Origin: Apoderus coryli
Taxonomy: Eukaryota > Arthropoda > Insecta > Coleoptera > Attelabidae
Direction: 5' to 3'
Assembly (NCBI GenBank): GCA_911728435.2
Contig: OU452202.1
Location: 15,541,135-15,605,134, forward strand
DNA: 64,000 nt
A model generated the notes under the pieces. The model was not told the DNA's origin, did not search any database, and was given only the letters and a program-made list of their open reading frames with translations. The position numbers were made by a program, and so were the translations under genes. This document shows, piece by piece, positions 4,471 through 59,300 of the stretch (within the stretch, counting starts at the first letter, position 1; every line of letters starts with the position of its first letter).

Positions 4471-6890
4471 TGCCCGTTTGCACCACATACACTTTAAGTA
4501 GAGAATAGTTAAGGGTCATCTAAATTTTAAGAACGGAATTGATTGCACCGAATCATGAGTAGGTAGCACTTAGTTAAGTATCGGGTAAATTTGTCAACAT
4601 AGCAAATTTAAGGTAGCCGACAATGAAGAGGAGTTTTTTGGTCGGGCAGTAGGTAATATTTTAACTTTTAACCTCTTCAGTTTTGTTTTCATAATAATTC
4701 ATAATGTAAACATTAATTTTGATTGTGAATGTGAACGAAAATTATTAAATACTAGAGTTAAATTGTGTCCGTAAATATAATAGAAACAAAATTATTTTGT
4801 GGCATAGCGGACAAAATGACTGGGTTTACCTACAGAAGGGACTTTGTTTAGACTGAGGCCCTGCTAAATTACACAAAAGTCCCTTGTGTAGGAAAAACCA
4901 GTCATTTTGTCCGCTATGCCACAAAATTATTTTCATTTTATTATTTAATACATTTTTTTAATATAACATATAATACGATGGAAGTTAGTGATACATAAAA
5001 AAAGAGAAGACCTCCAAACTACACTTCCAACGAGAAAGAAGTTCTTCTATCGATAGTGTTGGATCATAGTTATTGTGGCATCATTCAAATTAATAAAATT
5101 AACTTTTTGTTATTATTTTCCATTGTTAAATTTATCTATTCTTATTGTTATATATTTGAAATGTATTTATTACATATACATAGTATTTGATCTGTTTCTA
5201 TTATAAGATTTAGCTAGATGAGTGCTACTACTACTTACATATTTTATGATTTATATTCAAAAATAGTTTTAGTTTATTATTTACCTGGGAACATAAGTAG
5301 AGTTGTTAGCTTATTTATTCTTTTGTGGATTAATAATTAAATAAACTGTAAACGTGAAGTTGTTATGGTTTTAATACATAGGTATATACCTCTATTATTA
5401 TTTTTTAATATCGACTATTTCCTCAGTACCTCTATATATATATATAATAGGTATGTTAAGCACAAAGACGCTTTTCGGTCTTTCCTACTAACATCTTCTA
5501 TTCTATTGAAAGCTGTCATAGCTCATCAAATTCTAGTAAAAATGCTCAATTTGGTCTAGGATAGACCGAATCGTAGTCTTCGTCAGTCGAAATCTTTGAA
5601 AAAAATTTAAATTGTCCATATCTAAAAATAATTCGGCCTTTCATAAACCCTCCTTGGAAATCCATGTTCAATTAATTCGAAAACATCAAGATCCTCGTCA
5701 AATAATTCCATATTTTTAATTTTTTAATCGCCACACACAGTAAACAACCCAATAATGAAAAATATAAAAGCAATATTGAGGTTAGAATTCCATTTAAGAA
5801 GAGATTTCTCGAGTCAACTTATGCCCGTTGGCACCACATACAGTTTAAGTAGAGAATAGTTAAGGGTCACCTAAATTTTAAGAACGGAATTGATTGCACC
5901 GAATCATGAGTAGATAGCACTTAGTTAAGTATCGGGTAAATTTGTCAACATAGCAAATTTAAGGTAGCCGACAATGAAGAAGAGTTTTTTGGTCGGGCAG
6001 TAGGTAAGCATACGTTAATTTCCTTTTATACCGAGCCAATGGGAACGTTCGCCCTTAGGTCGTGTTTCCGTGGGTGGCCGACGCGGATCGGTGGCGTGCA
6101 TTTCGCTTTGTTTTTGCTGTTTGAATATTTTGGCGCCATAAGCTAGTGCTCTGAATATTATAAACAACTGAATCTGTTACTAGATAAAAAGCAAAAACAA
6201 ACTCGTTTATAACAGCAATAATTCTTATTGCTACATATAAAATAATAATTTATAAGTATAGTTGCGAATAGTTGTTATGGTTTTAATTTATACCTCTATA
6301 TAATAGTAATAGGTATGTTAAGCACAAAGACCCTTTCTGGTCTTTATCTTCTAATGAAAGCTGTCATATCTCATCAAATTCTAGTAAAAATGCTCAATTT
6401 GGTCTAGGATAGGCCGAATCGTAGGCTTCGTCAGTCGAAATCTTTGAAAAAAACTTAAATTTTCCATATCTTAAAAATAATTCGGCCTTTCATACACCCT
6501 CCTTGGAAATCCATGTTCAATTAATTCGAAAACATCAAGATCATCATCCAATAATCCCATATTTTTAATCGCCACACAATGTAAACAACCCAATAATGAA
6601 AAATATAAAAGCAATATTGAGGTTAGAATTCCATTTAAGAAGAGAATTTTCGAGTCTTAACTTAAGGAACACTTAGGCAAATTTAAAGTGACGTTTTAAC
6701 GTGGTGCAATAAAAAATAGATGCTAAGCGACTCTTAGAACAAATCGTGACTTAAAATATTCTTCAACACTTCACTTAAGTGACACTTAGGCAAATTTAAA
6801 GTGACGTTTTAACGCGGTGCAATAAAAAATAGATGCTAAGCGCCTCTTAGAACAAATCGTGACTTAAACGGTATGTGGTGCAAACGGGCA
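4471..6890 (-). mobile_element. Tandem PIF/Harbinger-derived element
   Basis: Two copies of one non-autonomous element are joined head to tail. The first starts with TGCCCGTTTGCACCACATAC at 4471, and the second repeats this start (one mismatch) at 5822. The inverted complement ends the second copy at 6890. The outer flanks are TAA (4468-4470) and TAA (6891-6893), the 3-bp target duplication usual for PIF/Harbinger, so the pair behaves as one insertion. The minus strand of each copy (about 5470-5720 and 6340-6575) encodes a HARBI1-like N-terminus, with motifs FELIEHGFPRRVYERPNYF and FQRFRLTK. In-frame stops break it. The first copy lacks the last ~230 bp. The second copy has a ~115-bp internal duplication near 6665-6865. 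Confidence 0.85.
4795..4926. repeat. Foldback MITE with perfect 29-bp arms
   Basis: The 29-base arms at 4795-4823 and 4898-4926 are exact reverse complements, beginning TTTTGTGGCATAGCGGAC. TTAT precedes and follows the unit and may be its target duplication. It is nested in the first Harbinger copy. A diverged piece of its centre, with CCCTTGTGTAGG, recurs near 23435-23490. Confidence 0.85.
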
Positions 6891-39600: not shown

Positions 39601-42600
39601 AATATTTCACGTAGACAATGTGGCAAAGATGTAACAAGATTGTTGTAGATCTTATAATACCTATAATAAAAAAATTATCAGTGCTACCTATATTATATTA
39701 GGTATACCTATTATAATAGTCTGTCTCTTCTTCAGGTATAAGTTCCACTTTATCGGTTTAGGTACTTAAATTTTACTTCTTTTTAATGTTTCTTCGGGTA
39801 AATAATAAGTTCGGTAGGAATAGGGCTTTGGGTATGAAACAAAAAAGATAGAAAATAGAAATTTGATATAGGGGTAGTTCTAAGCATTTACAAGTTTGTG
39901 ACGTGTAGCGATTTTCGATGCCGCCCCCGGAGGTATACATGAGGGCGGCGCAATGCCGTTTTAAATATCTCGTTTCGCTTTCTTGGAAAATAAAAAATTA
40001 TAACTGATAACTGAAACTTAGTACTTAAACGTGGGCGTAAGAGGTAAGCTCACTTCACAGGTCTCTATTAATGAAAGAAAGTTAACATTTTGAGCATCTG
40101 CGTAAAATTAAATGTATCCGTTTGGTGGGTAGTTTTGATTACAATAAGTCGGTGCCAAGCCCAAGCCCGAAACAAAATAAATCTATATTTACCTACTACC
40201 TATTTGGCTTGGTACCGACTATTATGTGCATTGTTGTCTTTTGAATGATATTTGTATTTTGTTATTTTTCGTATTTTTTATTAGTTCTTTTGACAGCTCT
40301 GGTGTCATCAATACACCTGTATCCCGAATTGCACCAAATTGCGATGCTATTGAACAAGCATATAATCCTAAATATAATATTCTTTTTGAACTACCTGTAT
40401 CTCGAAAACCAAGCCGTAGCGGACCCATGTACATATGAAATTTGTATCTTAAAATTAGTCAAAGAATCACCCTTTAAAGTTTGTACAAGTACTTATGCAA
40501 CACCCTGTATACATAGATACTTTGATTTGCAATTTGCAAATCTGTCAAACTAGGTAATGCTGTTTTTTTTTATTTACTTTCAAATATGGTATTATGTAAT
40601 TGTATTCAAATTAAATGTTTGGGGATGATATTTACGAGTTTTATTTTTTTATATAGAGAAACTGTTATTCAGTTTTTAAGGATCAATCTGAAGCAGACGA
40701 TTGTACTTGTTAAAACATGAAAAAAGTTATTGTCGTGATACTTTTAACACCCTGTTGGTGGGTTTTTAAAGCTTTTTACGAAACGTGTTAACAATACAAT
40801 CTACATAAATCGTTAGTTTTTTAAAGTTTTATGATCATTGCACAAAAACCAATATTAGGGAGACTGTAAGTTTTTTTTCAATTCGGCGTTGCAGAATTTG
40901 AACCTAATTGTGATAATTGTGTTATTTTACTAGTATAGATATTTTTGAGTAAATTAATTCGGTTATAATCGATGAGTAGAATCTTTGGAGTAAAATACAT
41001 TTCACAAAAACCCTGAACCATATTTCTCAATAGATTTAAATTTTCATTAAAAACAGATTAAAAATTCTAATTTTTTACATCCTGCATTTCGAAACCGTAT
41101 TTTTTTAAATAATTATTGTCATGCTGGAAATTTCAAACCTTATTTACTTCAGCAACTTGTAAAAAGCACAGCCTTTTTAATATTAACATTTCTTAAAATC
41201 GATATTAAGCGATAACGATGACTTTCTATCAATATCACAGAAGGATACATTTATTACGTATATAATTTGTTAGATTTTATATCTCCGAATTGAAACACAC
41301 GCAAAAAATGTGCATAAAAAAGTTAGGGTAGCATTTCACGCCTGTATGCCCCTTTAATTTACCCGCCTCTGAGATTTATTTTTTCATAATGTTAACGACA
41401 AGTTGAATCTGCTGTTTGAGTTTGATCCTTAAAACTGAATCAGGTAATAACCGGAAGTCCTATCTATAACGCCAAATTTCGTTAATTTAAATATAACTTT
41501 TTGATGCATCCTTATATCCGAAATTTAAAATTAAATGACTAAAATAATATTATTTTAGTCATTTAAAATTATTGTCTAAAACATTTAATAAACCAGCCCT
41601 GTATATTTATACTATTATAGTAATTTCTTTTATTTTCGTCCATACACATTAATCTTTACGTAGATAGGTATACGTATACCATATAATTTTAAACAAAAAA
41701 CACTGCTGCACAGTAGTACATATATGATACCTATAATATAAAAACAAACTCCCACCTCGTAGGGGAAAGTATACTCGTCCTTGTCTAACATTGCCCATAT
41801 GATTATTTTATTTCAACACAATACATATAACGCCATCTACAATTTCCATAATTTCCATGGTTGCATGTTTTTCTAATAGATGTAGCTCGTGTCGAGACAG
41901 TTTCAATTTTTGTTTTATTTCCCATATACGCTGACTATCTATTGTGTAGATTAATCTTTGGTTTTAACCATAGATTGCCCAATCCATACTTATAGTCTTA
42001 CTGGTAGCCTGTGGCCATCCTACAAATATGTCCTCAAGTGGAAGCCTGAAACGGATAGTGGTTGGTTATATTGGATTACTGAAATTCGAACAGACTGTTC
42101 AGATATAGATAGGATAAAAAACAAGGGGACATTATGATAATATGGCTATACTATCTGGGGTTTCTCCGGTTGAATGAGTTACATCTTATTGAATCTTAAA
42201 AAGCTGCTATTCTAGTAACTGTAACCGTAGTCAAGAAAATCATGTATGAATAACTTGATATGGATACCTTTTTTTCAGTTTTGCAATGGAGGTGATTTGG
42301 CAGATTATCTGACAGTTAAAGGCAGTCTCAGTGAAGATACCATCAGAATATTTCTAAATCAAATCGGTATGAATATTCAAATATTTGATTTACTGAACAT
42401 TCCTAATCATACTTTTTGTATTATTAAATATTAGCGGGAGCCATGAAAGCGTTCCATGCCAAAGGTGTAATCCACAGAGATCTGAAACCGCAAAATATAC
42501 TTTTGGATCATAAGGGTGGCGTTAAAGGAGATGTGGATGCGTCCGATATCACTTTGAAAATTGGTAAGTGATTTACCGCTATGAAATGTATTTTGTTTTG

Positions 42601-45600
42601 CAGTGAATAGATCGTATTTCCAAATATAATAAAATATTGGGTCAACTGTTATTTTTAGTCCACACCATAGATTTGTTAAACTCAGTTTCAAATGAGAAGG
42701 TTCAACCGTATGCGATATGGGACTTAATAACTCTCTCTGACTATAGCCATGCCTCAATTTGAGTTAATGAGTCCATAAAATGAGTGATGACTGTTCATGC
42801 AATCGATAACATATAGTATCAAACTACAACATTGTGTAAACGATTTAATACATTTGACGGTGTAGTTATTTAAGTTTCATTACTTATGTATATATATCAT
42901 TTCAGCTGATTTTGGTTTTGCCAGATTTCTGCAGGACGGCGTAATGGCTGCAACTCTTTGTGGCAGTCCTATGTACATGGTAAGTTCCATTGATAATTAT
43001 TATATTATAAAAAGGGTAATATTAATGTGAAATTCATTTTAGGCGCCCGAAGTTATAATGTCGCAGCAGTATGATTGCAAAGCTGACCTATGGAGTTTAG
43101 GGACAATAGTATTTCAATGTTTGACTGGTAAGGCTCCGTTTCATGCTAGGTCGCCGCAAGAGTTGAAAATGTTTTACGAGAAGAACGTGAATTTGTGTCC
43201 AAGGTATGTTATTTAAATGTTGAACAAGAAGTTACTCATTTCCATGCGTGTAAAAAATTAATAAATTTCTGAAAGCATCTACTTTAAGTGTACAAAATCT
43301 TAACTGCATTTTCCACATTATTAATAAATAATAAATAGTTTATTTGCAGTCATATACAAAGAAAAATTTACAATGCATAACGTGTAAACATAAAAAAAAA
43401 CGCAATCACAATTACAATATAGCAACCGCAATCATAACTACAAGAAGCCAAAAAATAACTACAAAAGGGGTTAGAAGGCAGTAAAAAATTGTCCGATATG
43501 GGAATTCGTTGTGCGGTCAATGGCTGGATTGCGTCGTACTTGTCTGATCGGAAGATTAGTGTCAGGGTTGATTCGTCGGTCTCGGAATCCAAAAATTATT
43601 AATGTGGGGGCACCACAAGGGAGCGTTTTGGGTCTGCTTCTATTTTTACTTTACGTAAACGATTTGCCCCTGCACATTCCATCTGCAAGGGCTTTTATGT
43701 ATGCCGATGATACATCTCTGGTAGTCCACGACAAGGATCCAGAAGTACTGCGGATAAAAATTCTGTCCGTTATGCATATATTTAATTCCTGGTGCACTCA
43801 AAACAAACTGATGATCAATCATGATAAGACTGTCGTTCTGCAGTTCAGTAGGTATCGTGCAGTGCTGAATTACGCCTTGGTGTTTGAGGGCCATCGGCTG
43901 GAGTGGGCTACGTCTTCGAGGATTTTGGGAGTGACCTTCGATCGGCGGCTGCAGTGGGCTGATCATTTGGAAACTGAACAGCCAGGCTTACGTGATTTAC
44001 ACTCTCAGAAGTCACATGAATACTGGCGCTCTACTTAATATTTATTACTCTTTCGTGTATGCTACTATTGCCTACAACATTATCGTCTGGGGACGATCGA
44101 GTGACATATCCAGGGTGTTATTCATCCAAAAAAGAATTTTACGCACTTTGTTTCGCCTGTCATACAATTTCTCGTGTAGGGAGACATTTAGACGATGGCG
44201 TTTACTCACGGTTGCTTATATATACTTGCTTAAAATCCTGACGTATATTTTTAAAAACATCTGCAGGTTTCGGCGTAATGGCTCCTTGCACGACTATGCC
44301 ACTAGGGGCAGAGAGAGGAGGCCTCGACATGAGTTTTTTAAAAAGTCACCAGATTACTTTGGACTACTTTATTTTAATATGTTGCCTGAATCTATTAGGA
44401 ATTCGAGAAATATTCATCAATTTAGTAGAAATTTAAAGGAATTCCTTATACTACACTCTTTTTACAGTCTGAGCGAGTATGTTGAGCACTGCTCTTAATG
44501 ATCCTTCTTTATTGTGTTTTGACGTCTTGTGTGGTGACGAACTGTTGTTTTTGTTTGACTGTCTTATTCTGACGTTGTATGTTTATGGTTTAATGTGCAT
44601 ATACAGGTATTTTTGTGTATAAGTTTTACCTATAGGTTGATACCATTGAATTTGTGTTTAGATTTTATATTGTTTTATTGTTTATTTACTTGACATGCCT
44701 ATGTACTATTAGATTTTTGTACTAACTCAAGGCTAATAAAGTTATTACTATTATTATTATTAAAACTGATTAAAAGTGCTTGTGGGTATGATTTTGTTGT
44801 ATTAATGATTATATTTTTGTACTTACAGAATTCCACCTAGTACTAGCGCAGAATTAACCGATCTCTTATTGGGTCTCCTCAAGCGAAATCCGAAAGATCG
44901 TATGGACTTTCCTGTATTTTTCAACCATAAGTTTTTTAAACGGGTGGAATCACCGGTTAGTCCACGTACTAGCCATGGAGGTAAGTTTAAAAACTTATAA
45001 TTAAACGCAATAAAACTAAAGCCGTCACCTCCACAAATTGTTTTAATTAAATCATCAGGTAAACAACTAAATTTTTGGTGTAGATGAAAAAGATTTTTTT
45101 TATGGACAAAAGTTAGTTATTAGTGAACATAAAACATTTCGAAACCCCGAATTAAATGAGAAAATATAAATTATAACAAAGAAACAATTTTTGTCGAAAA
45201 AAAAATGATTAAGTACTATAAAACTAAAAAACTACAAATTTTCATGCAGAACTCCAACACGAAAACAAATGTTGAAATTGTTATAATATAATAATAATAA
45301 TAATTGCTTTATTGCTCAACAGAAAAGTCCATTTACATAGCAATCTTTTAAAAATAAATATATGAATATTATTATAGTACGGGTGTCGAAAAATGCATAT
45401 TAAAACTATAAATCGACCCAATTATTCTTTTAAAGGTAGGTAGATGTTTGAATGAAATGAATTAAAATAGTTTAAATTCACTTTCAAATAGACTAAAATT
45501 TAATTCTTATGATCCACTTTCAGACAAAAGGAATACACTACGGTTTGCATAATAGTAGGTCGGAATTTGGTAATTTTATCGTTCAATATATTTTTTAAAC

Positions 45601-48600
45601 TATGGTGCAGTGTGTATTTCTGTCAGGATCCTCAATTTCTTTTTATAATAAAAAAATAAAACCTCTATGGGGTGGCATCACCGACTTTAAATTATGTCAT
45701 ATTATCATAAAATATCATGAGATCAAGGTAAAAAGATTCATATCATAGCACTTTGGATCAAAACAATTTAACAATATGTTTGAATTCAACAAATATTTTT
45801 ATAAATTTATCTGAGCAAAGATACCTACTAAACTTGTTTACTAATCAACACAACACACTTTATTGAAACACGCATGTTTTTATTTTTTTATTGACACAGG
45901 CGAAAACCAACTAGCCACCTCTCCCCGATGATCGATTTCGCAATACTGAATTATTCTGTATTCTAATTGAAATACTTTAGGTGACAAAATATGTTACGGC
46001 ACCCATGCTTTATAGTTTGACACCAAATATAATATAAGCCATTGTTTGATTTATTCTAGTTCAAATATTTTAGGCAGGAAAACAAAAATATAGCTCCTGA
46101 AATCACGAAGAGCATGAGAAGTCGATAATAGGTGGCGAAATTTCATGGGTCGTTAATAGGTACTTTTTTTTACCTTACATATGCGTAGTACAAGATTTTT
46201 ATTGTATCACAATCATTAAAATATTCCGAATTTCTTTCAAGCAAGCCATCCATCTTAGACGCACCTCTACAATATTCGATATGTGATCAGCAAAGGTCAG
46301 AAACTCATCAAATGTTACTTCCAAATCGTTCACCGTTACAAACCTATTCAAAATAGTGCCCCCAATGGTATAATTACAATTAATCTGCGACAGTTTTCCT
46401 GAAAATGTCATTACTTTACACTTATCAGAGTTTAACGCTATCTTGTTATTACTACACCATATCTTTATTCTGTTCAAATGCCTTTCACGAAGAGAACAGT
46501 CTTCTACTCGCGTTACGTTGCTAAAGATCTTTAAATCATCCGCGACAGCATGATATCGTACAATATAAATTTATAGTCCTTTTAATGTTTCCTAATGACT
46601 TTTTATTGATGTAGAATTACCTGCATATGCTTACGGTTCTTCTCCGCTTGCAAGAAAAATTGCAAAACCATCTACACCTGTCAAAGTGTTAACTCCCATA
46701 AAAGTTGGTACACCTCCCAGATCATTACCAGGTAAGTCAACGCATTTGTGTGTGTGTACGGTGTTTACAATTTTGTGGAGACTGACTTTTATTTTATCCC
46801 CAAAAATTTCCAATTTTCCTATAAAACTATTTTATATCCTCCTATTTCTACTAACGAATGGCAGTCAGAACCACCCCAAGACGTCCGACATGGCTAGGTC
46901 ATTTTTAGATTTTTAAAAATGACACATGCATCGAATAATTTGGATTGATTCTGGCTACACGAAAACTGGCATGATTAGGTTTATTTACGTAAAAAACTTT
47001 TATTTTCGATCGTTAATCAATCATTTTGATTCATCATAACCATTCTTATAACTTTTAGAATCGCCTAGATCTACAAGGACTGCACTCAGTTCCAGTCCTG
47101 ATGATGATTATGTTATAGTTCCAAGAGAGCCAGAACAATCGTTGGAGATTAGTGTTGAAAAAGACAAACCTACGTAAGTTTATTAGCTTATTTTTAAAGT
47201 TGATTGATGACTTATTATCATGATGAATTTAATACAGACGGTATACGAAATGCATGGGCGTAGTCAGGGTGGGGCGCTTACCCCCTTCCCTGGACGGACC
47301 CTATTAAAAAAATTTCAAATTCAAAAAAAGTTCGATTTCGTGGGTATGACGTGACCAGTATAATCGCATAATGGCTTACGATACTGAACAAACCTTAACA
47401 AACCCGGACGCAAAATATAAAAAAGCAGCGCTCCCGGTGGAGATGCAAGAAACTATAATAACTAAAGGGCGGAATATATGCAAAGTGCATATATTTGCAT
47501 ATTTTGCATATTTTTACAAATTTCATAAAAAATTGCATATTTCGGCAAAAATAAAATTTGTGTGCATATTTTTATGTTTTTCGTTTTATCAAAAGATTAA
47601 GTGCGACCCTTGCAGGTAATTGAAATAATTTAACATGTGGGTAGGTTTTATTATTATATTGTTTATTGCCGGCATTTATTGGATGTTTAGGAATTCCCAG
47701 TGTGGTAGTAAGTAGAGCAAATGTGGTCTATTCTTTTGTATTTATATTGTATAGTTTAGTTTGTCGATAGATTCCAGTGTGAAAAGAGTGATTTCGAAAA
47801 TACGAGTATTTGTTTCAAACGCCTAAAATGCCGAAAGCTGCTTCGTGGATTAAAAATTTTCCTGAGTTGGAGTTTAGTGGGGATAAAGTGTTTTGCAAAG
47901 TTTGTGCCAAAATCATTGTTTGTGAAAAGAAGTTCCAAATTGATCTCTATCAATTTTTTTTTTACCAAATCCAGTTCCAGTAGAGAAGTTTTTAGTGTTT
48001 TTGTCTGACGCAGCGCCGTATATGGTTAAAGTAGGCCAAAACTTAAAAATATTTTATCCCAATATGGTACATGTCACTTGCCTTTTACACGAAATAAACA
48101 GAGTTGCAGAAACTATTAGAACAGCATATCCCTTGGTGAACAAATTAATTTCAAATGTAAAGAAAGTGTTTTTGAAAGCACCTCTAAGAGTGCAGATCTA
48201 TAGAGAGAAATTGCCAGGAGTTAGTTTACCTCCAGAGCCCGTAATTACTCGATGGGGAACATGGATTAAGGCCGCGATATTCTACGCAGACCATTTTGAA
48301 CCCATTAAAGACATAGTTTTAGATTTAGAAGACAATTCACAATGTGTAGTGCAAAGTCAAGAAGTATTAAAAAATGTAAATTTAGCTAAGGAACTTGTTT
48401 TTATTAAGGTTAATTTTAGTTTTATACCAGATATAATAACTTCGTTAGAAAGTAGGAATATAAGTTTAAGAGAATCAATTAAAATTGTTGAAACTTTTTC
48501 CGACAAATGCAAAAAAGTTCCTGGTGATGTAGGAAATCAAGTAAGAAGTAAACTCGAAGTTATTGTGGGAAAGAATGAAGGCTTTAAGTATTTAATGGAA

Positions 48601-51600
48601 GTCAAAAATGTTTTTGATACTAAACCATCCAACGAAGTAATACCTTGGCCTTATAACTTACTACCCAAATTAAAATATTGCCAGATCACATCGGTAGATG
48701 TTGAAAGAACTTTTTCTTTGTACAAACATATTTTTACAGACAGAAGGCAAAAACTTTTATCGGAAAATTTTGAAAAATATATCGTTATAAATGCATTTTA
48801 TACTATTTCAGATTAAAAATTTTACCTATTATATTTTTCTTTTAATTTTACTTAAAATAAATAATTTTTGTAAGAGTCGGCGTTTCTTTATTTCCATTTT
48901 TCTATGTTATATTCAAGGCATATAATTGCATATTTTGACAAATAAATGCATATTGTTGCATATTTCAAAGAAAAACTATGCATATATATGCGCATATTTT
49001 AACTGAATTGACGTGCATATATTCCGCCCTTTAATAATAACATAGTGTATATATCTGGTTATATATTATTATATATTGTTAGGTTTAGATTCACCAGTTG
49101 ATACTTTAAGGTTAAGCTCACTTCGCGAAATCGGATGCTTTGTTTTTGAGCATTGAGCAGGAGGAGATCTTTTATAATTCCGTATCTGGATTCATTGATA
49201 ATGTTTTTAGGACAGCGATTCTCTAATGAAAATCTGCCAGCCTAAGAGTTGTTTTCATTATACCCTAATATATTTCTTGCTTTACCATTTGCTGAGTTTT
49301 AACAAAAGTTAAAATCTTTTGTGACCACTACAACTTAAACGAGATTTTGGCTCAAGTATGGTATAATCTATGGTAAGAAAAAAAAAATCAGATTCGGAGT
49401 TAAAAGAAATTGAACTAGTTAAAGAAGCGCAATCTTCTTATTCAGGCAATAAACAAGCGCCAAATTTCACTCGCGCAACCTTGCACTACCTGTACAATAG
49501 AAAGATCATTCAGCACCTTTCGTCGGTTAAAAACTTGGTTACGGTTATCAATGTTGTGTGACTTTGCATGATGAGCGTCCATCGAAAAAGAGTTTTAAAC
49601 GCGAATGATTAGTTTGAAAAAGAAATTTTGTCCAAGCTTAGCCAGAATTCTAGAAAGTTAATGCTAAAATAAAATACTTATGAGAGAGAGATGTTGGCAA
49701 TAGGATATAATGGAGTTGTTACTTCTTGTCCGGCCATCGTTAGTGAACTGTGTTTCACCCGGCATATTGCCTGTTCACGCTAGGTGTCGCCAAAAATATC
49801 TCTCTCTCAATCAATTCTCGTGCTAGTATAAGCTCTTTGTAAATGTTGGAAATTTAGGTCACACTGCCTGCCGATCACCACTGATGAGTCGTGGATCGAC
49901 GAAACGGCCGTCTGGTGGAAGCATGGTAGTGTGAAATAAATTTCCAACATAACTTAAAGTCTTGTTGCTTTATGTAACAAGCAATTCTTAAATAAAGCCT
50001 CCCTGCTAGGGGATTCGGGCGCATCTAGTGTTGGCAATAGGATATAATGGAGTTGTTACTTCTTGTCCGGCCATCGTTAGTGAACTGTGTTTCACCCGGC
50101 ATATTGTCTGTTCACGCTAGGTGTCGCCAAAAATATCTCTCTCTCAATCAATTCTCGTGCTAGTATAAGCTCTTTGTAAATGTTGGAAATTTAGGTCACA
50201 CTGCCTGCCGATCACCACTGGTGAGTCGTGGATCGACGAAACGGCCGTCTGGTGGAAGCATGGTAGTGTGAAATAAATTTCCAACATAACTTAAAGTCTT
50301 GTTGCTTTATGTAACAAGCAATTCTCAAATAAAGCCTCCCTGCTAGGGGATTCGGGCGCATCTAGTGTTGGCAATAGAATATAATGGAGTTGTTACTTCT
50401 TGTCCGGCCATCGTTAGTGAACTGTGTTTCACCCGGCATATTGCCTGTTCACGCTAGGTGTCGCCAAAAACATCTCTCTCTCAATCAATTCTCGTGCTAG
50501 TATAAGCTCTTTGTAAATGTTGGAAATTTAGGTCACACTGCCTGCCGATCACCACTGATGAGTCGTGGATCGACGAAACGGCCGTCTGGTGGAAGCATGG
50601 TAGTGTGAAATAAATTTCCAACATAACTTAAAGTCTTGTTGCTTTATGTAACAAGCAATTCTTAAATACTTATGAGTTACGAACCCAACATTTGTTTTGA
50701 TAAATTTTTTATGTTAAGACGAGTTTCCTCGTTGCCTTGCTCCACCATGGGGAACACCCTGGCTACGCTCATGACGAGTTCGATTCAATATTTTTTTTGT
50801 TATACTATACCGCATACTCCCAAACACCTGATAACTGAATGTGTTGGCATTCGCGAAGAGTGCTTAAATTTACCATCCCTGACACCATACAAGCTCTCAC
50901 TTGAAACAAATTTCAAGGATTCAAGACACACGATAGATCTTCAGGTCGCAGTGCTTCAGACAGCCCTATTTAATTTTAATTTTACAATACAGTGGAGTGG
51001 AGAGTATTACGATCTCTGGATGGTACTTTGACAAGCAACAATTTCTAATGATCACATTTTTTTTTGTAGATTAGAACTTCCTGTCCGCAGCTCGCCTACA
51101 CCAGACACAGTTCCAACTAGTCCCAATAGACCATCATTCTTACCTATTTCAGAACCAGTTCCTGTTCCAACGCAGCGAGAAGCATTCAAACTGCTGTCAC
51201 AAAGCAAAAAAGATGTTGCGTCTTCGGCAGAGGTAAAAATATATTTATTGTAGTTGGAGTTTTTCAATATATTTTCAAAAATAAAATTAATTTATAGGCT
51301 TCCGGCAGTGTGCCAAGATCACAGCCTATCACGATGAAACGGCCACCAGATAGGCAGTTGAGCAACGATATTGATATTGCATCGCTTACACCGCCTTCTG
51401 TAAGTTTTATTTTTTACTATCAATATACATGATCTGTCCCATAAATATCCGACCCTCGTTCCTGACTTCGTCGAAGAACATCCGAGCGACCTCTGTGGGT
51501 ATGTCCGTAACAACTGGGTCGGTAATTACGGATTACCGTACAGGTGCCAGAAAGGAGCGGATTAAAATTTCGACTGATGCCCATTCAACTAGGTTGGTGG

Positions 51601-59227: not shown

Positions 59228-59300
59228 GCCGAAATAGCTCAGTTGGGAGAGCGTTAGACTGAAGATCTAAAGGTCCCTGGTTCGATCCCTGGTTTCGGCA
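59228..59300 (+). tRNA. tRNA-Phe: tRNA-Phe (GAA)
   Basis: 73 bases without an intron. The acceptor GCCGAAA pairs with TTTCGGC, followed by discriminator A. The D-arm is GCTC...GAGC. The anticodon stem TTAGA/TCTAA encloses CTGAAGA, with anticodon GAA at positions 34-36. The variable loop is AGGTC and the T-loop is TTCGATC. Box A (TAGCTCAGTTGG) and box B (GGTTCGATCCC) are intact, and a run of ten T's right after serves as Pol III terminator. The T-stem reads CCTGG on both sides, so position 51:63 is a T-T mismatch where the usual sequence has a G at 63. Confidence 0.95.

What the first reader, a model, noticed from the sequence alone, without database searches (positions are those of the whole stretch)
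49685..50663. Retrozyme-like tandem array with 337-bp hammerhead units inside Atg1
Three units keep a full type I hammerhead layout (CTGATGA, stem II GTCG/CGAC, GAAA, GTC cleavage triplet, stem I TCACCA/TGGTGG), with predicted cut sites spaced exactly 337 bp. The DNA is non-coding, tandem and inserted with its own target duplication. Metazoan retrozymes with this design were described recently and are thought to make circular RNAs. This family's sequence may be undescribed. It is in sense with Atg1, so Atg1 pre-mRNA itself would contain the ribozymes.
Basis: partly seen in the sequence, partly recalled or inferred. Interest (0 to 1): 0.92.

Follow-up and report, generated by a model that had tools for sequence, protein, structure and literature searches.

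The report
Circular-RNA retrozyme inserted in Atg1 intron
A small mobile element carrying a self-cutting ribozyme sits in an intron of the autophagy gene Atg1, and its sister copies elsewhere in the genome carry a signature suggesting that one tiny RNA circle was copied into both strands of a cut chromosome at once.

Summary
Window 49685-50663 is a 2.9-unit tandem array (337 bp) with type I hammerheads, flanked by a 13-bp target duplication, sense to Atg1, in an intron. Cores 1 and 3 are intact; the middle one reads CTGGTGA, so only cuts after 49912 and 50586 are expected. It is a metazoan-type retrozyme.

The new part is how copies are built. I mapped 39 best-scoring sister loci plus this one. 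Thirty are divergent head-to-head arrays with 8-16 bp duplications (mode 12). In 29 of 30, one arm ends at unit position 78-85 and the other at 228-240. The 5'-5' junction is random. Units on both arms are nearly identical within a locus (0.2 differences on average, 18 loci; 6.2 when loci are shuffled). So one RNA circle was apparently reverse-transcribed repeatedly from both strands of a staggered cut, each strand starting at its own fixed, unpaired RNA site.

Penelope-like elements of this genome show the same unlike-ends rule (12 of 12 testable family-A loci), 12-14 bp duplications and the same AAC^ target. A second retrozyme family agrees. I infer Penelope machinery. Cleavage, circles and mobilisation are untested.

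The parts
49672..49684 (.). left target-site duplication AAATACTTATGAG
49685..49692 (-). remnant of the second, inverted arm: with the last 3 bases of the duplication reads GAGAGAGAGAT, the reverse complement of unit positions 223-233 (second start region)
   Evidence: sequence; in 30 two-arm sister loci this arm is 0.13-10.4 units long
49692..50668 (+). tandem array of 2.9 units of 337 bp, unit position 117 to 82 (position 1 = base after the hammerhead cut)
49875..49918 (+). hammerhead type I, unit 1, intact core; stem I 49875-49880/49913-49918, CTGATGA 49881-49887, stem II 49888-49891/49897-49900, GAAA 49901-49904, GTC 49910-49912, predicted cut after 49912
   Evidence: (32.3 bits)
50212..50255 (+). 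hammerhead type I, unit 2, core mutated (CTGGTGA at 50218-50224), expected inactive
   Evidence: (25.0 bits)
50549..50592 (+). hammerhead type I, unit 3, intact core, predicted cut after 50586
   Evidence: 32.3 bits
49798..49811 (+). second reverse-transcription start region (ATCTCTCTCTCAAT, unit 223-236), unpaired in the predicted circle
   Evidence: arm ends in sister loci; fold
49983..49997 (+). first reverse-transcription start region (AATTCTTAAATAAAG, unit 71-85; arm ends at 78-85), unpaired in the predicted circle
   Evidence: arm ends in sister loci; fold
50664..50676 (.). right target-site duplication AAATACTTATGAG; its first 5 bases overlap the array end
42231..45000 (+). Atg1/ULK kinase exon stretches upstream of the insertion (within 42231-42434, 42428-42571, 42866-43030, 43043-43216, 44809-45000)
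51075..51236 (+). putative downstream Atg1 exon, placing the array in an intron
   Evidence: reading by eye; no family search of this stretch

Best explanation
This is a member of a dispersed family of non-autonomous metazoan retrozymes. Its RNA is cut by the hammerhead into 337-nt monomers and ligated into circles (inferred from family knowledge). A Penelope-like protein, probably a dimer, makes a staggered cut of about 12 bp at an AT-rich site resembling AAC^N12^GTT. The 3' end exposed on one strand primes reverse transcription at one fixed unpaired site of the circle (unit position about 80). The 3' end on the other strand primes at a second fixed unpaired site (about 236). Both run several times around the same circle or identical circles, giving two antisense tandem cDNAs that are joined 3' to 3', often at short microhomology, so no separate second-strand primer is needed. 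The result is a head-to-head pair of tandem arrays with two different outer ends and a short target duplication. The Atg1 copy is such an event in which the second arm stopped after about 8-11 nt.
For: Unlike ends: 29 of 30 two-arm loci have one end at 78-85 and the other at 228-240; L017 has 82 and 180; no locus has two ends of one kind. Duplications are 11-16 bp in 28 of 30 and 8 bp in 2. Junction phases are uniform (KS p 0.77, n 60). One template: in the 18 loci with full units on both arms, one + unit and one - unit per locus differ by 0.22 on average, against 6.25 when loci are permuted (10000 permutations, minimum 3.0). Within-locus distance is 0.14% against 2.6% between loci; L045 has 13 full units on both arms, all identical. 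Equal arms: 3.31 and 3.38 units on average in 30 loci, p 0.75. Both start sites fall in the two long unpaired stretches of the predicted circle, 70-87 and 217-246, in one multiloop. Target: AAC before the duplication in 12 of 28, GTT after it in 6 of 28, background 1.9%. Two independent insertions hit the same 14-bp site in opposite polarity, from different circle variants (L036, L042). Second family: of 40 clusters, 21 are two-armed and 19 of those have unlike ends. Penelope-like elements: 12 of 12 testable family-A loci have unlike ends, duplications are 12-14 bp in 14 of 14 loci examined, AAC^ in 5 of 14 with matching polarity, and their hammerhead has a palindromic minimal stem III.
Against: No RNA data: cleavage, circles and transposition are untested. 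In only 7 of 18 loci are the two arms closer to each other than to the nearest unit of any other locus; in 11 of 18 some other locus holds an identical unit, so arm identity does not single out one molecule. The 3' regions of two Penelope-like families share no detectable sequence with the retrozyme, so no specific partner is named. The retrozyme start sites are about 156 nt apart, against about 36 nt in the family-A element. Three of four Penelope-like loci examined at the centre (L058, L059, L061) are close to symmetric palindromes, unlike most retrozyme junctions. Six of the 40 loci lack a detectable second arm, and in four of those I found no duplication. Retrozyme loci are the best-scoring candidates for a three-unit query and Penelope-like loci were picked because they were two-armed, so shares of all copies are unknown. 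No LINE insertions were examined as a control. The published Penelope-like enzyme starts at sites without homology to the target, while here the duplication overlaps the arm ends by 2.6 and 4.3 nt on average, not tested against chance.
Confidence: 0.72

Rival explanations
1. A LINE-type element mobilises the retrozyme: ordinary target-primed reverse transcription at one site, with twin priming giving the inverted arm.
For: LINE-type reverse transcriptase fragments exist in the window (43475-44038, RVT_1); twin priming also gives head-to-head inversions with microhomology (recalled).
Against: Twin priming would be expected to give a variable second site in a minority of copies (recalled). Here the second site is fixed in 29 of 30 two-arm loci, and 30 of the 40 mapped loci are two-armed. 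Duplication length and AAC^ target match Penelope-like elements of the same genome. No LINE insertions were compared.
Confidence: 0.12
2. A foldback DNA transposon: the inverted arms are its terminal repeats and the tandem units are expanded internal repeats.
For: Long inverted arms made of tandem repeats, with target duplications.
Against: The two outer ends are different sequences in all 30 two-arm loci, arm lengths vary from 0.13 to 10.4 units, and the hammerhead core is kept in 229 of 241 motifs.
Confidence: 0.03
3. Satellite-like expansion in place: a short insertion grew by unequal exchange, or a DNA circle was copied and integrated; the hammerhead is incidental.
For: Units are homogeneous within loci, as local exchange or gene conversion would also give; the two full window units differ by 5 transitions.
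Against: Both arms share the same variant in opposite orientation, both outer ends sit at fixed unit positions, and identical variants occur at separate loci (L042, L026, L030).
Confidence: 0.08
4. The template is a linear tandem transcript rather than a circle, with the same two start sites.
For: Genomic arrays would give such transcripts; [quoted passage not shown]
Against: Units within a locus are nearly identical and both arms use the same variant. A tandem transcript from an already homogeneous array could mimic this, so it is not excluded.
Confidence: 0.2

Closest known systems
Metazoan non-LTR retrozymes (PMC7229834)
   Same: Type I hammerhead, small tandem units (150-450 bp described), low GC, target duplications, highly paired predicted circle, insects named among hosts.
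   Different: An exact hammerhead match was found in neither of two collections scanned (neither is a collection of animal genomes). Head-to-head arms and two fixed start sites are not mentioned in the parts read (parts 2-4 of 6); the word 'inverted' does not occur in its main text.
Penelope-like elements (PMC3846280, PMC11167929)
   Same: Head-to-head inverted copies, a short duplication, an optional tail at one of the outer 3' ends, cutting and extension of both strands, two internal start sites, type I hammerhead.
   Different: They encode RT and GIY-YIG endonuclease. Their two start sites lie about 30-40 nt apart, those here about 156 nt. They are not multimers of a small circle.
Newt and axolotl hammerhead repeats (PMC7229834)
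   Same: About 330-bp tandem units, minimal stem III with palindromic loop.
   Different: Far higher copy number in axolotl; no two-ended insertion structure described in the parts read.

Membership tests
Metazoan non-LTR retrozyme | Type I hammerhead in tandem repeats of 150-450 bp | tested here: met
   Rfam scores 32.3 and 25.0 bits are below the gathering score of 34
Metazoan non-LTR retrozyme | No protein-coding region | tested here: met
   frames of 48-54 aa only within the array
Metazoan non-LTR retrozyme | No LTR, primer-binding site or polypurine tract | not tested
   none seen on reading; no separate search made
Metazoan non-LTR retrozyme | Dispersed insertions with target duplications longer than 4 bp | tested here: met
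Metazoan non-LTR retrozyme | Transcribed, self-cleaved and circular RNA | not testable with these tools
   no RNA data; only fold prediction
Penelope-like element | Encodes reverse transcriptase and GIY-YIG endonuclease | tested here: not met
   array has no such frame; it is not itself a Penelope-like element
Penelope-like insertion mechanism | Head-to-head arms with unlike outer ends and short duplication | tested here: met
   29 of 30 two-arm retrozyme loci; 12 of 12 testable family-A Penelope-like loci
Penelope-like insertion mechanism | Shared target preference in the same genome | tested here: met
   AAC^ in 12 of 28 retrozyme and 5 of 14 Penelope-like sites, background 1.9%; no LINE control
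Penelope-like insertion mechanism | Shared RNA recognition sequence between retrozyme and partner | tested here: inconclusive
   no similarity above shuffles for two families; other families not tested
Foldback DNA transposon | Identical terminal inverted repeats | tested here: not met
   outer ends differ in all 30 two-arm loci

The most novel reading that the evidence does not exclude
The retrozyme circle is a two-socket template. It carries two separate primer sites, one for each strand of a Penelope-type staggered cut, so a dimeric Penelope complex can run two rolling-circle reverse transcriptions on one RNA circle and join the two cDNAs, making a double-stranded insertion without a separate second-strand step. 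The mutated and intact hammerheads within Atg1 pre-mRNA would then be by-products of such an event.
Probability: 0.55. Interest if true: 0.86.

Novelty: new variant of a known kind. Interest (0 to 1): 0.72.

Why it matters
How metazoan retrozymes re-enter the genome, and which enzyme moves them, is left open in the literature read here: PMC7229834 names Penelope-like elements as a strong candidate, and PMC7761336 says the repeats show no motif that would help deduce the partner. The two fixed ends, the near-identical units on both arms and the target shared with Penelope-like elements turn that into a concrete, testable model. They also give genomic support for a circle being copied several times over, and suggest how both strands of such an insertion could be made at once. 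Divergent copies could be transcribed as long double-stranded RNA, a possible source of small RNAs (inference).

Tried and rejected
Pfam PF26215 was not in the library, so PF01541 was used to find Penelope-like elements. Exact searches for the hammerhead in viral contigs and genome contigs found nothing, as expected for collections without animal genomes. Similarity between the retrozyme and the 3' regions of two Penelope-like families was not above shuffles. A CGCCA stretch upstream of the second start site, seen by eye in retrozyme and family-A element, was not tested and is not claimed. Hammerhead conservation across loci was only modest: 26 of 337 windows are as conserved or more, so I do not claim selection. 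A hammerhead count over the whole genome was never obtained. hmmscan found no family in the L061 protein, although the genome search had scored GIY-YIG there at 32.6 bits. Its 728 relatives, 120 of them listed, nearly all carry PF26215 in the list, many PF00078, six PF01541; no solved structure matched it. The Rfam scan of six Penelope-like loci gave 32 rows and no hammerhead, 31 of them microRNA models; the Penelope hammerhead was read by pattern. I rejected snapback as the main source of the second arm because phase differences at the junction are uniform (p 0.64), although four loci share the same offset.

Full report
The array. Window 49692-50668 is a tandem repeat of period 337 with 2.9 copies and 98% matches. 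It is flanked by the 13-bp duplication AAATACTTATGAG at 49672-49684 and 50664-50676. Rfam Hammerhead_1 aligns to all three units at 32.3, 25.0 and 32.3 bits against a gathering score of 34. The middle unit has CTGGTGA instead of CTGATGA, so two of three cores are intact. The two full cut-to-cut units differ at 5 positions, all transitions. The predicted circle of unit 50250-50586 folds at -109.6 kcal/mol, z -6.5 against 100 shuffles. Five exon stretches upstream on the same strand, joined by me, match ULK1/ULK2 at about 1e-81, so the host gene is Atg1. With a putative downstream exon at 51075-51236 (by eye) the array lies in an intron, in sense.

Sister copies. A search of the same genome (428 Mb, 129 contigs) gave 149 matches, with 40 of 1821 first-look candidates scored. 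The query had three units, so single or decayed copies are under-represented. I fetched 39 loci and treated the window as the fortieth. I numbered the unit from the base after the hammerhead cut and mapped each locus; they hold 2.4 to 16.0 units each. Thirty of 40 are two arms in divergent orientation by a rule that drops pieces under 90% identity. The other ten: L033 has a 43-base second arm of 88% identity, ends at 240 and 80 and a 12-bp duplication; the window and L022 keep only a few bases of the 236-type arm; L019 is a composite; L027 and L044 have one arm with a duplication of 10 and 9 bp; L012, L023, L037 and L040 have an 80-type end and no convincing duplication.

The unlike-ends rule. 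In 29 of the 30 two-arm loci one outer 3' end lies at unit 78-85 and the other at 228-240; the exception is L017 (180 and 82). No locus has two ends of one kind. Duplications are 12 bp in 13 loci, 13 in 7, 14 in 6, 11 and 16 in one each, and 8 in two. The 5'-5' junction phases are uniform (KS p 0.77, n 60). Junction overlaps, with L032 (35 bases) left out: 16 of 29 have one or more shared bases, 6 are blunt, 7 have extra bases; random junctions would give one or more in 44%. The two arms are equally long on average, 3.31 and 3.38 units, in 30 loci (L033 added, L018 and L019 left out).

One template per locus. From 171 full units in 40 loci, the mean distance is 0.14% within loci and 2.6% between loci. 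In the 18 loci with full units on both arms, one + and one - unit per locus differ by 0.22 on average, against 6.25 when loci are shuffled. L045 has 13 full units over both arms, all identical; L036 has 9, all identical. Against a locus-specific reading: in 11 of the 18 loci some other locus holds an identical unit, and in only 7 of 18 are the arms closer to each other than to the nearest outside unit. The dominant unit is the same in L036 and L021, and in L042, L026 and L030, as a few active circle lineages would give. Repeated travel around one circle, or identical circles, fits best. A linear tandem transcript of a homogeneous source array is a weaker alternative.

Start sites and target. 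Both start regions lie in long unpaired stretches of the predicted circle, 70-87 and 217-246, in one multiloop. The sequence AAC stands directly before the duplication, at the nick that would prime the 80-type arm, in 12 of 28 loci; GTT stands directly after it, at the other nick, in 6 of 28; the background is 1.9% (the labels printed there name the flanks by side, and I give the reading by nick). Only the 28 loci with duplications of 11 bp or more were used. L036 and L042 have identical flanks over 299 and 296 aligned bases and hold insertions at the same 14-bp site in opposite polarity, from unit variants that differ at 4 alignment columns, so I take them as independent events.

Second family. 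The Rfam search of the genome gave 4 hits with 73 of 52198 candidates scored. L082 belongs to the first family; L083-L085 belong to a second one that keeps the hammerhead and differs elsewhere. Its unit is 331 bp in L090. A search with it gave 116 matches, 40 of 1419 candidates scored. Grouped, they form 40 clusters: 19 one-armed and 21 two-armed. Of the 21, 19 have unlike ends and two have one end elsewhere. The query itself ends at the first start site, so those ends are resolved to some tens of bases only, and two of the 19 (C19:14116k and C19:14297k) look like one duplicated locus. Among the second-family loci read in full, L083, L089 and L090 have two arms, unlike ends and duplications of 12-14 bp; L084 has two arms ending at 48 and 228 and no duplication found; L085 (fetched again as L086), L087, L088 and L091 have one arm.

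Penelope-like elements. The genome search listed 150 scored GIY-YIG matches of 1260 candidates; by eye 18 divergent pairs are among them. I examined 14 of the 18, chosen because they were two-armed: 13 of one family (A) and L061 of another (B). In 12 of 13 family-A loci one end carries a tail of 27-36 nt that the other lacks; in L060 one end is cut short. L061 also has unlike ends. Duplications are 12-14 bp in 14 of 14. AAC precedes the duplication in 5 of 14, at the nick that primes the arm without the tail. The family-A hammerhead (CTGAGGA...GAAACGCGCGTC) has a palindromic minimal stem III like the retrozyme, and its two ends lie 50 and 86 nt after the cut. L058, L059 and L061 are close to symmetric palindromes; L060 has a spacer between its arms. 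The nearest named relatives of the family-B protein include beetle proteins (Diabrotica, Coccinella, Callosobruchus), which suggests, but does not show, a beetle host.

Literature. In PMC11167929 (parts 1 and 2 of 4 read) a purified Anolis Penelope-like protein cuts and extends both strands and starts reverse transcription at two adjacent internal RNA sites matching the genomic tail. In PMC3846280 (passages) the typical element has head-to-head inverted pLTRs, an optional tail at one 3' end and a short duplication. PMC7229834 (parts 2-4 of 6 and passages) describes metazoan retrozymes and names Penelope-like elements as a strong candidate helper; [quoted passage not shown] PMC11722881 was read in passages. 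Other papers were seen as listings only. I found no description of two-armed retrozyme insertions or of two start sites on a retrozyme in the listings of searches, which cover open-licence papers only.

What is shown and what is inferred. Shown by sequence: array, hammerheads, duplications, two-arm structure, unlike fixed ends, within-locus identity, duplication length and target shared with Penelope-like elements. Inferred: self-cleavage, circle formation, Penelope mobilisation, simultaneous copying of both strands, and any effect on Atg1.

Noticed in passing
L014, L017, L018, L026 junctions: Four of 30 two-arm loci share exactly the same phase offset at the 5'-5' junction (minus arm 10 positions below plus arm); unexplained.
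   Followed up: no
L058, L059, L061: Three of four Penelope-like two-arm loci are close to symmetric palindromes at the centre, unlike most retrozyme loci.
   Followed up: partly
L083, L084, L085, L090: A second retrozyme family (331-bp unit in L090) with the same hammerhead; the fourth base pair of stem II reads G-C in the first family and C-G in L085, a compensatory change.
   Followed up: partly
window 47944-48816 +: hAT-like transposase frame of 290 aa in the same Atg1 intron region (DUF659 and Dimer_Tnp_hAT, both below their cut-offs).
   Followed up: no
window 43475-44038 +: LINE-type reverse transcriptase fragment between Atg1 exon stretches (RVT_1).
   Followed up: no
window 59228-59300 +: tRNA gene, 69 bits.
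   Followed up: no
window 6656-6868: 113-bp unit, 1.9 copies, 95% matches.
   Followed up: no
L019 and L020: Two insertions apparently at the same position of a diverged host repeat (about 79% identity).
   Followed up: partly
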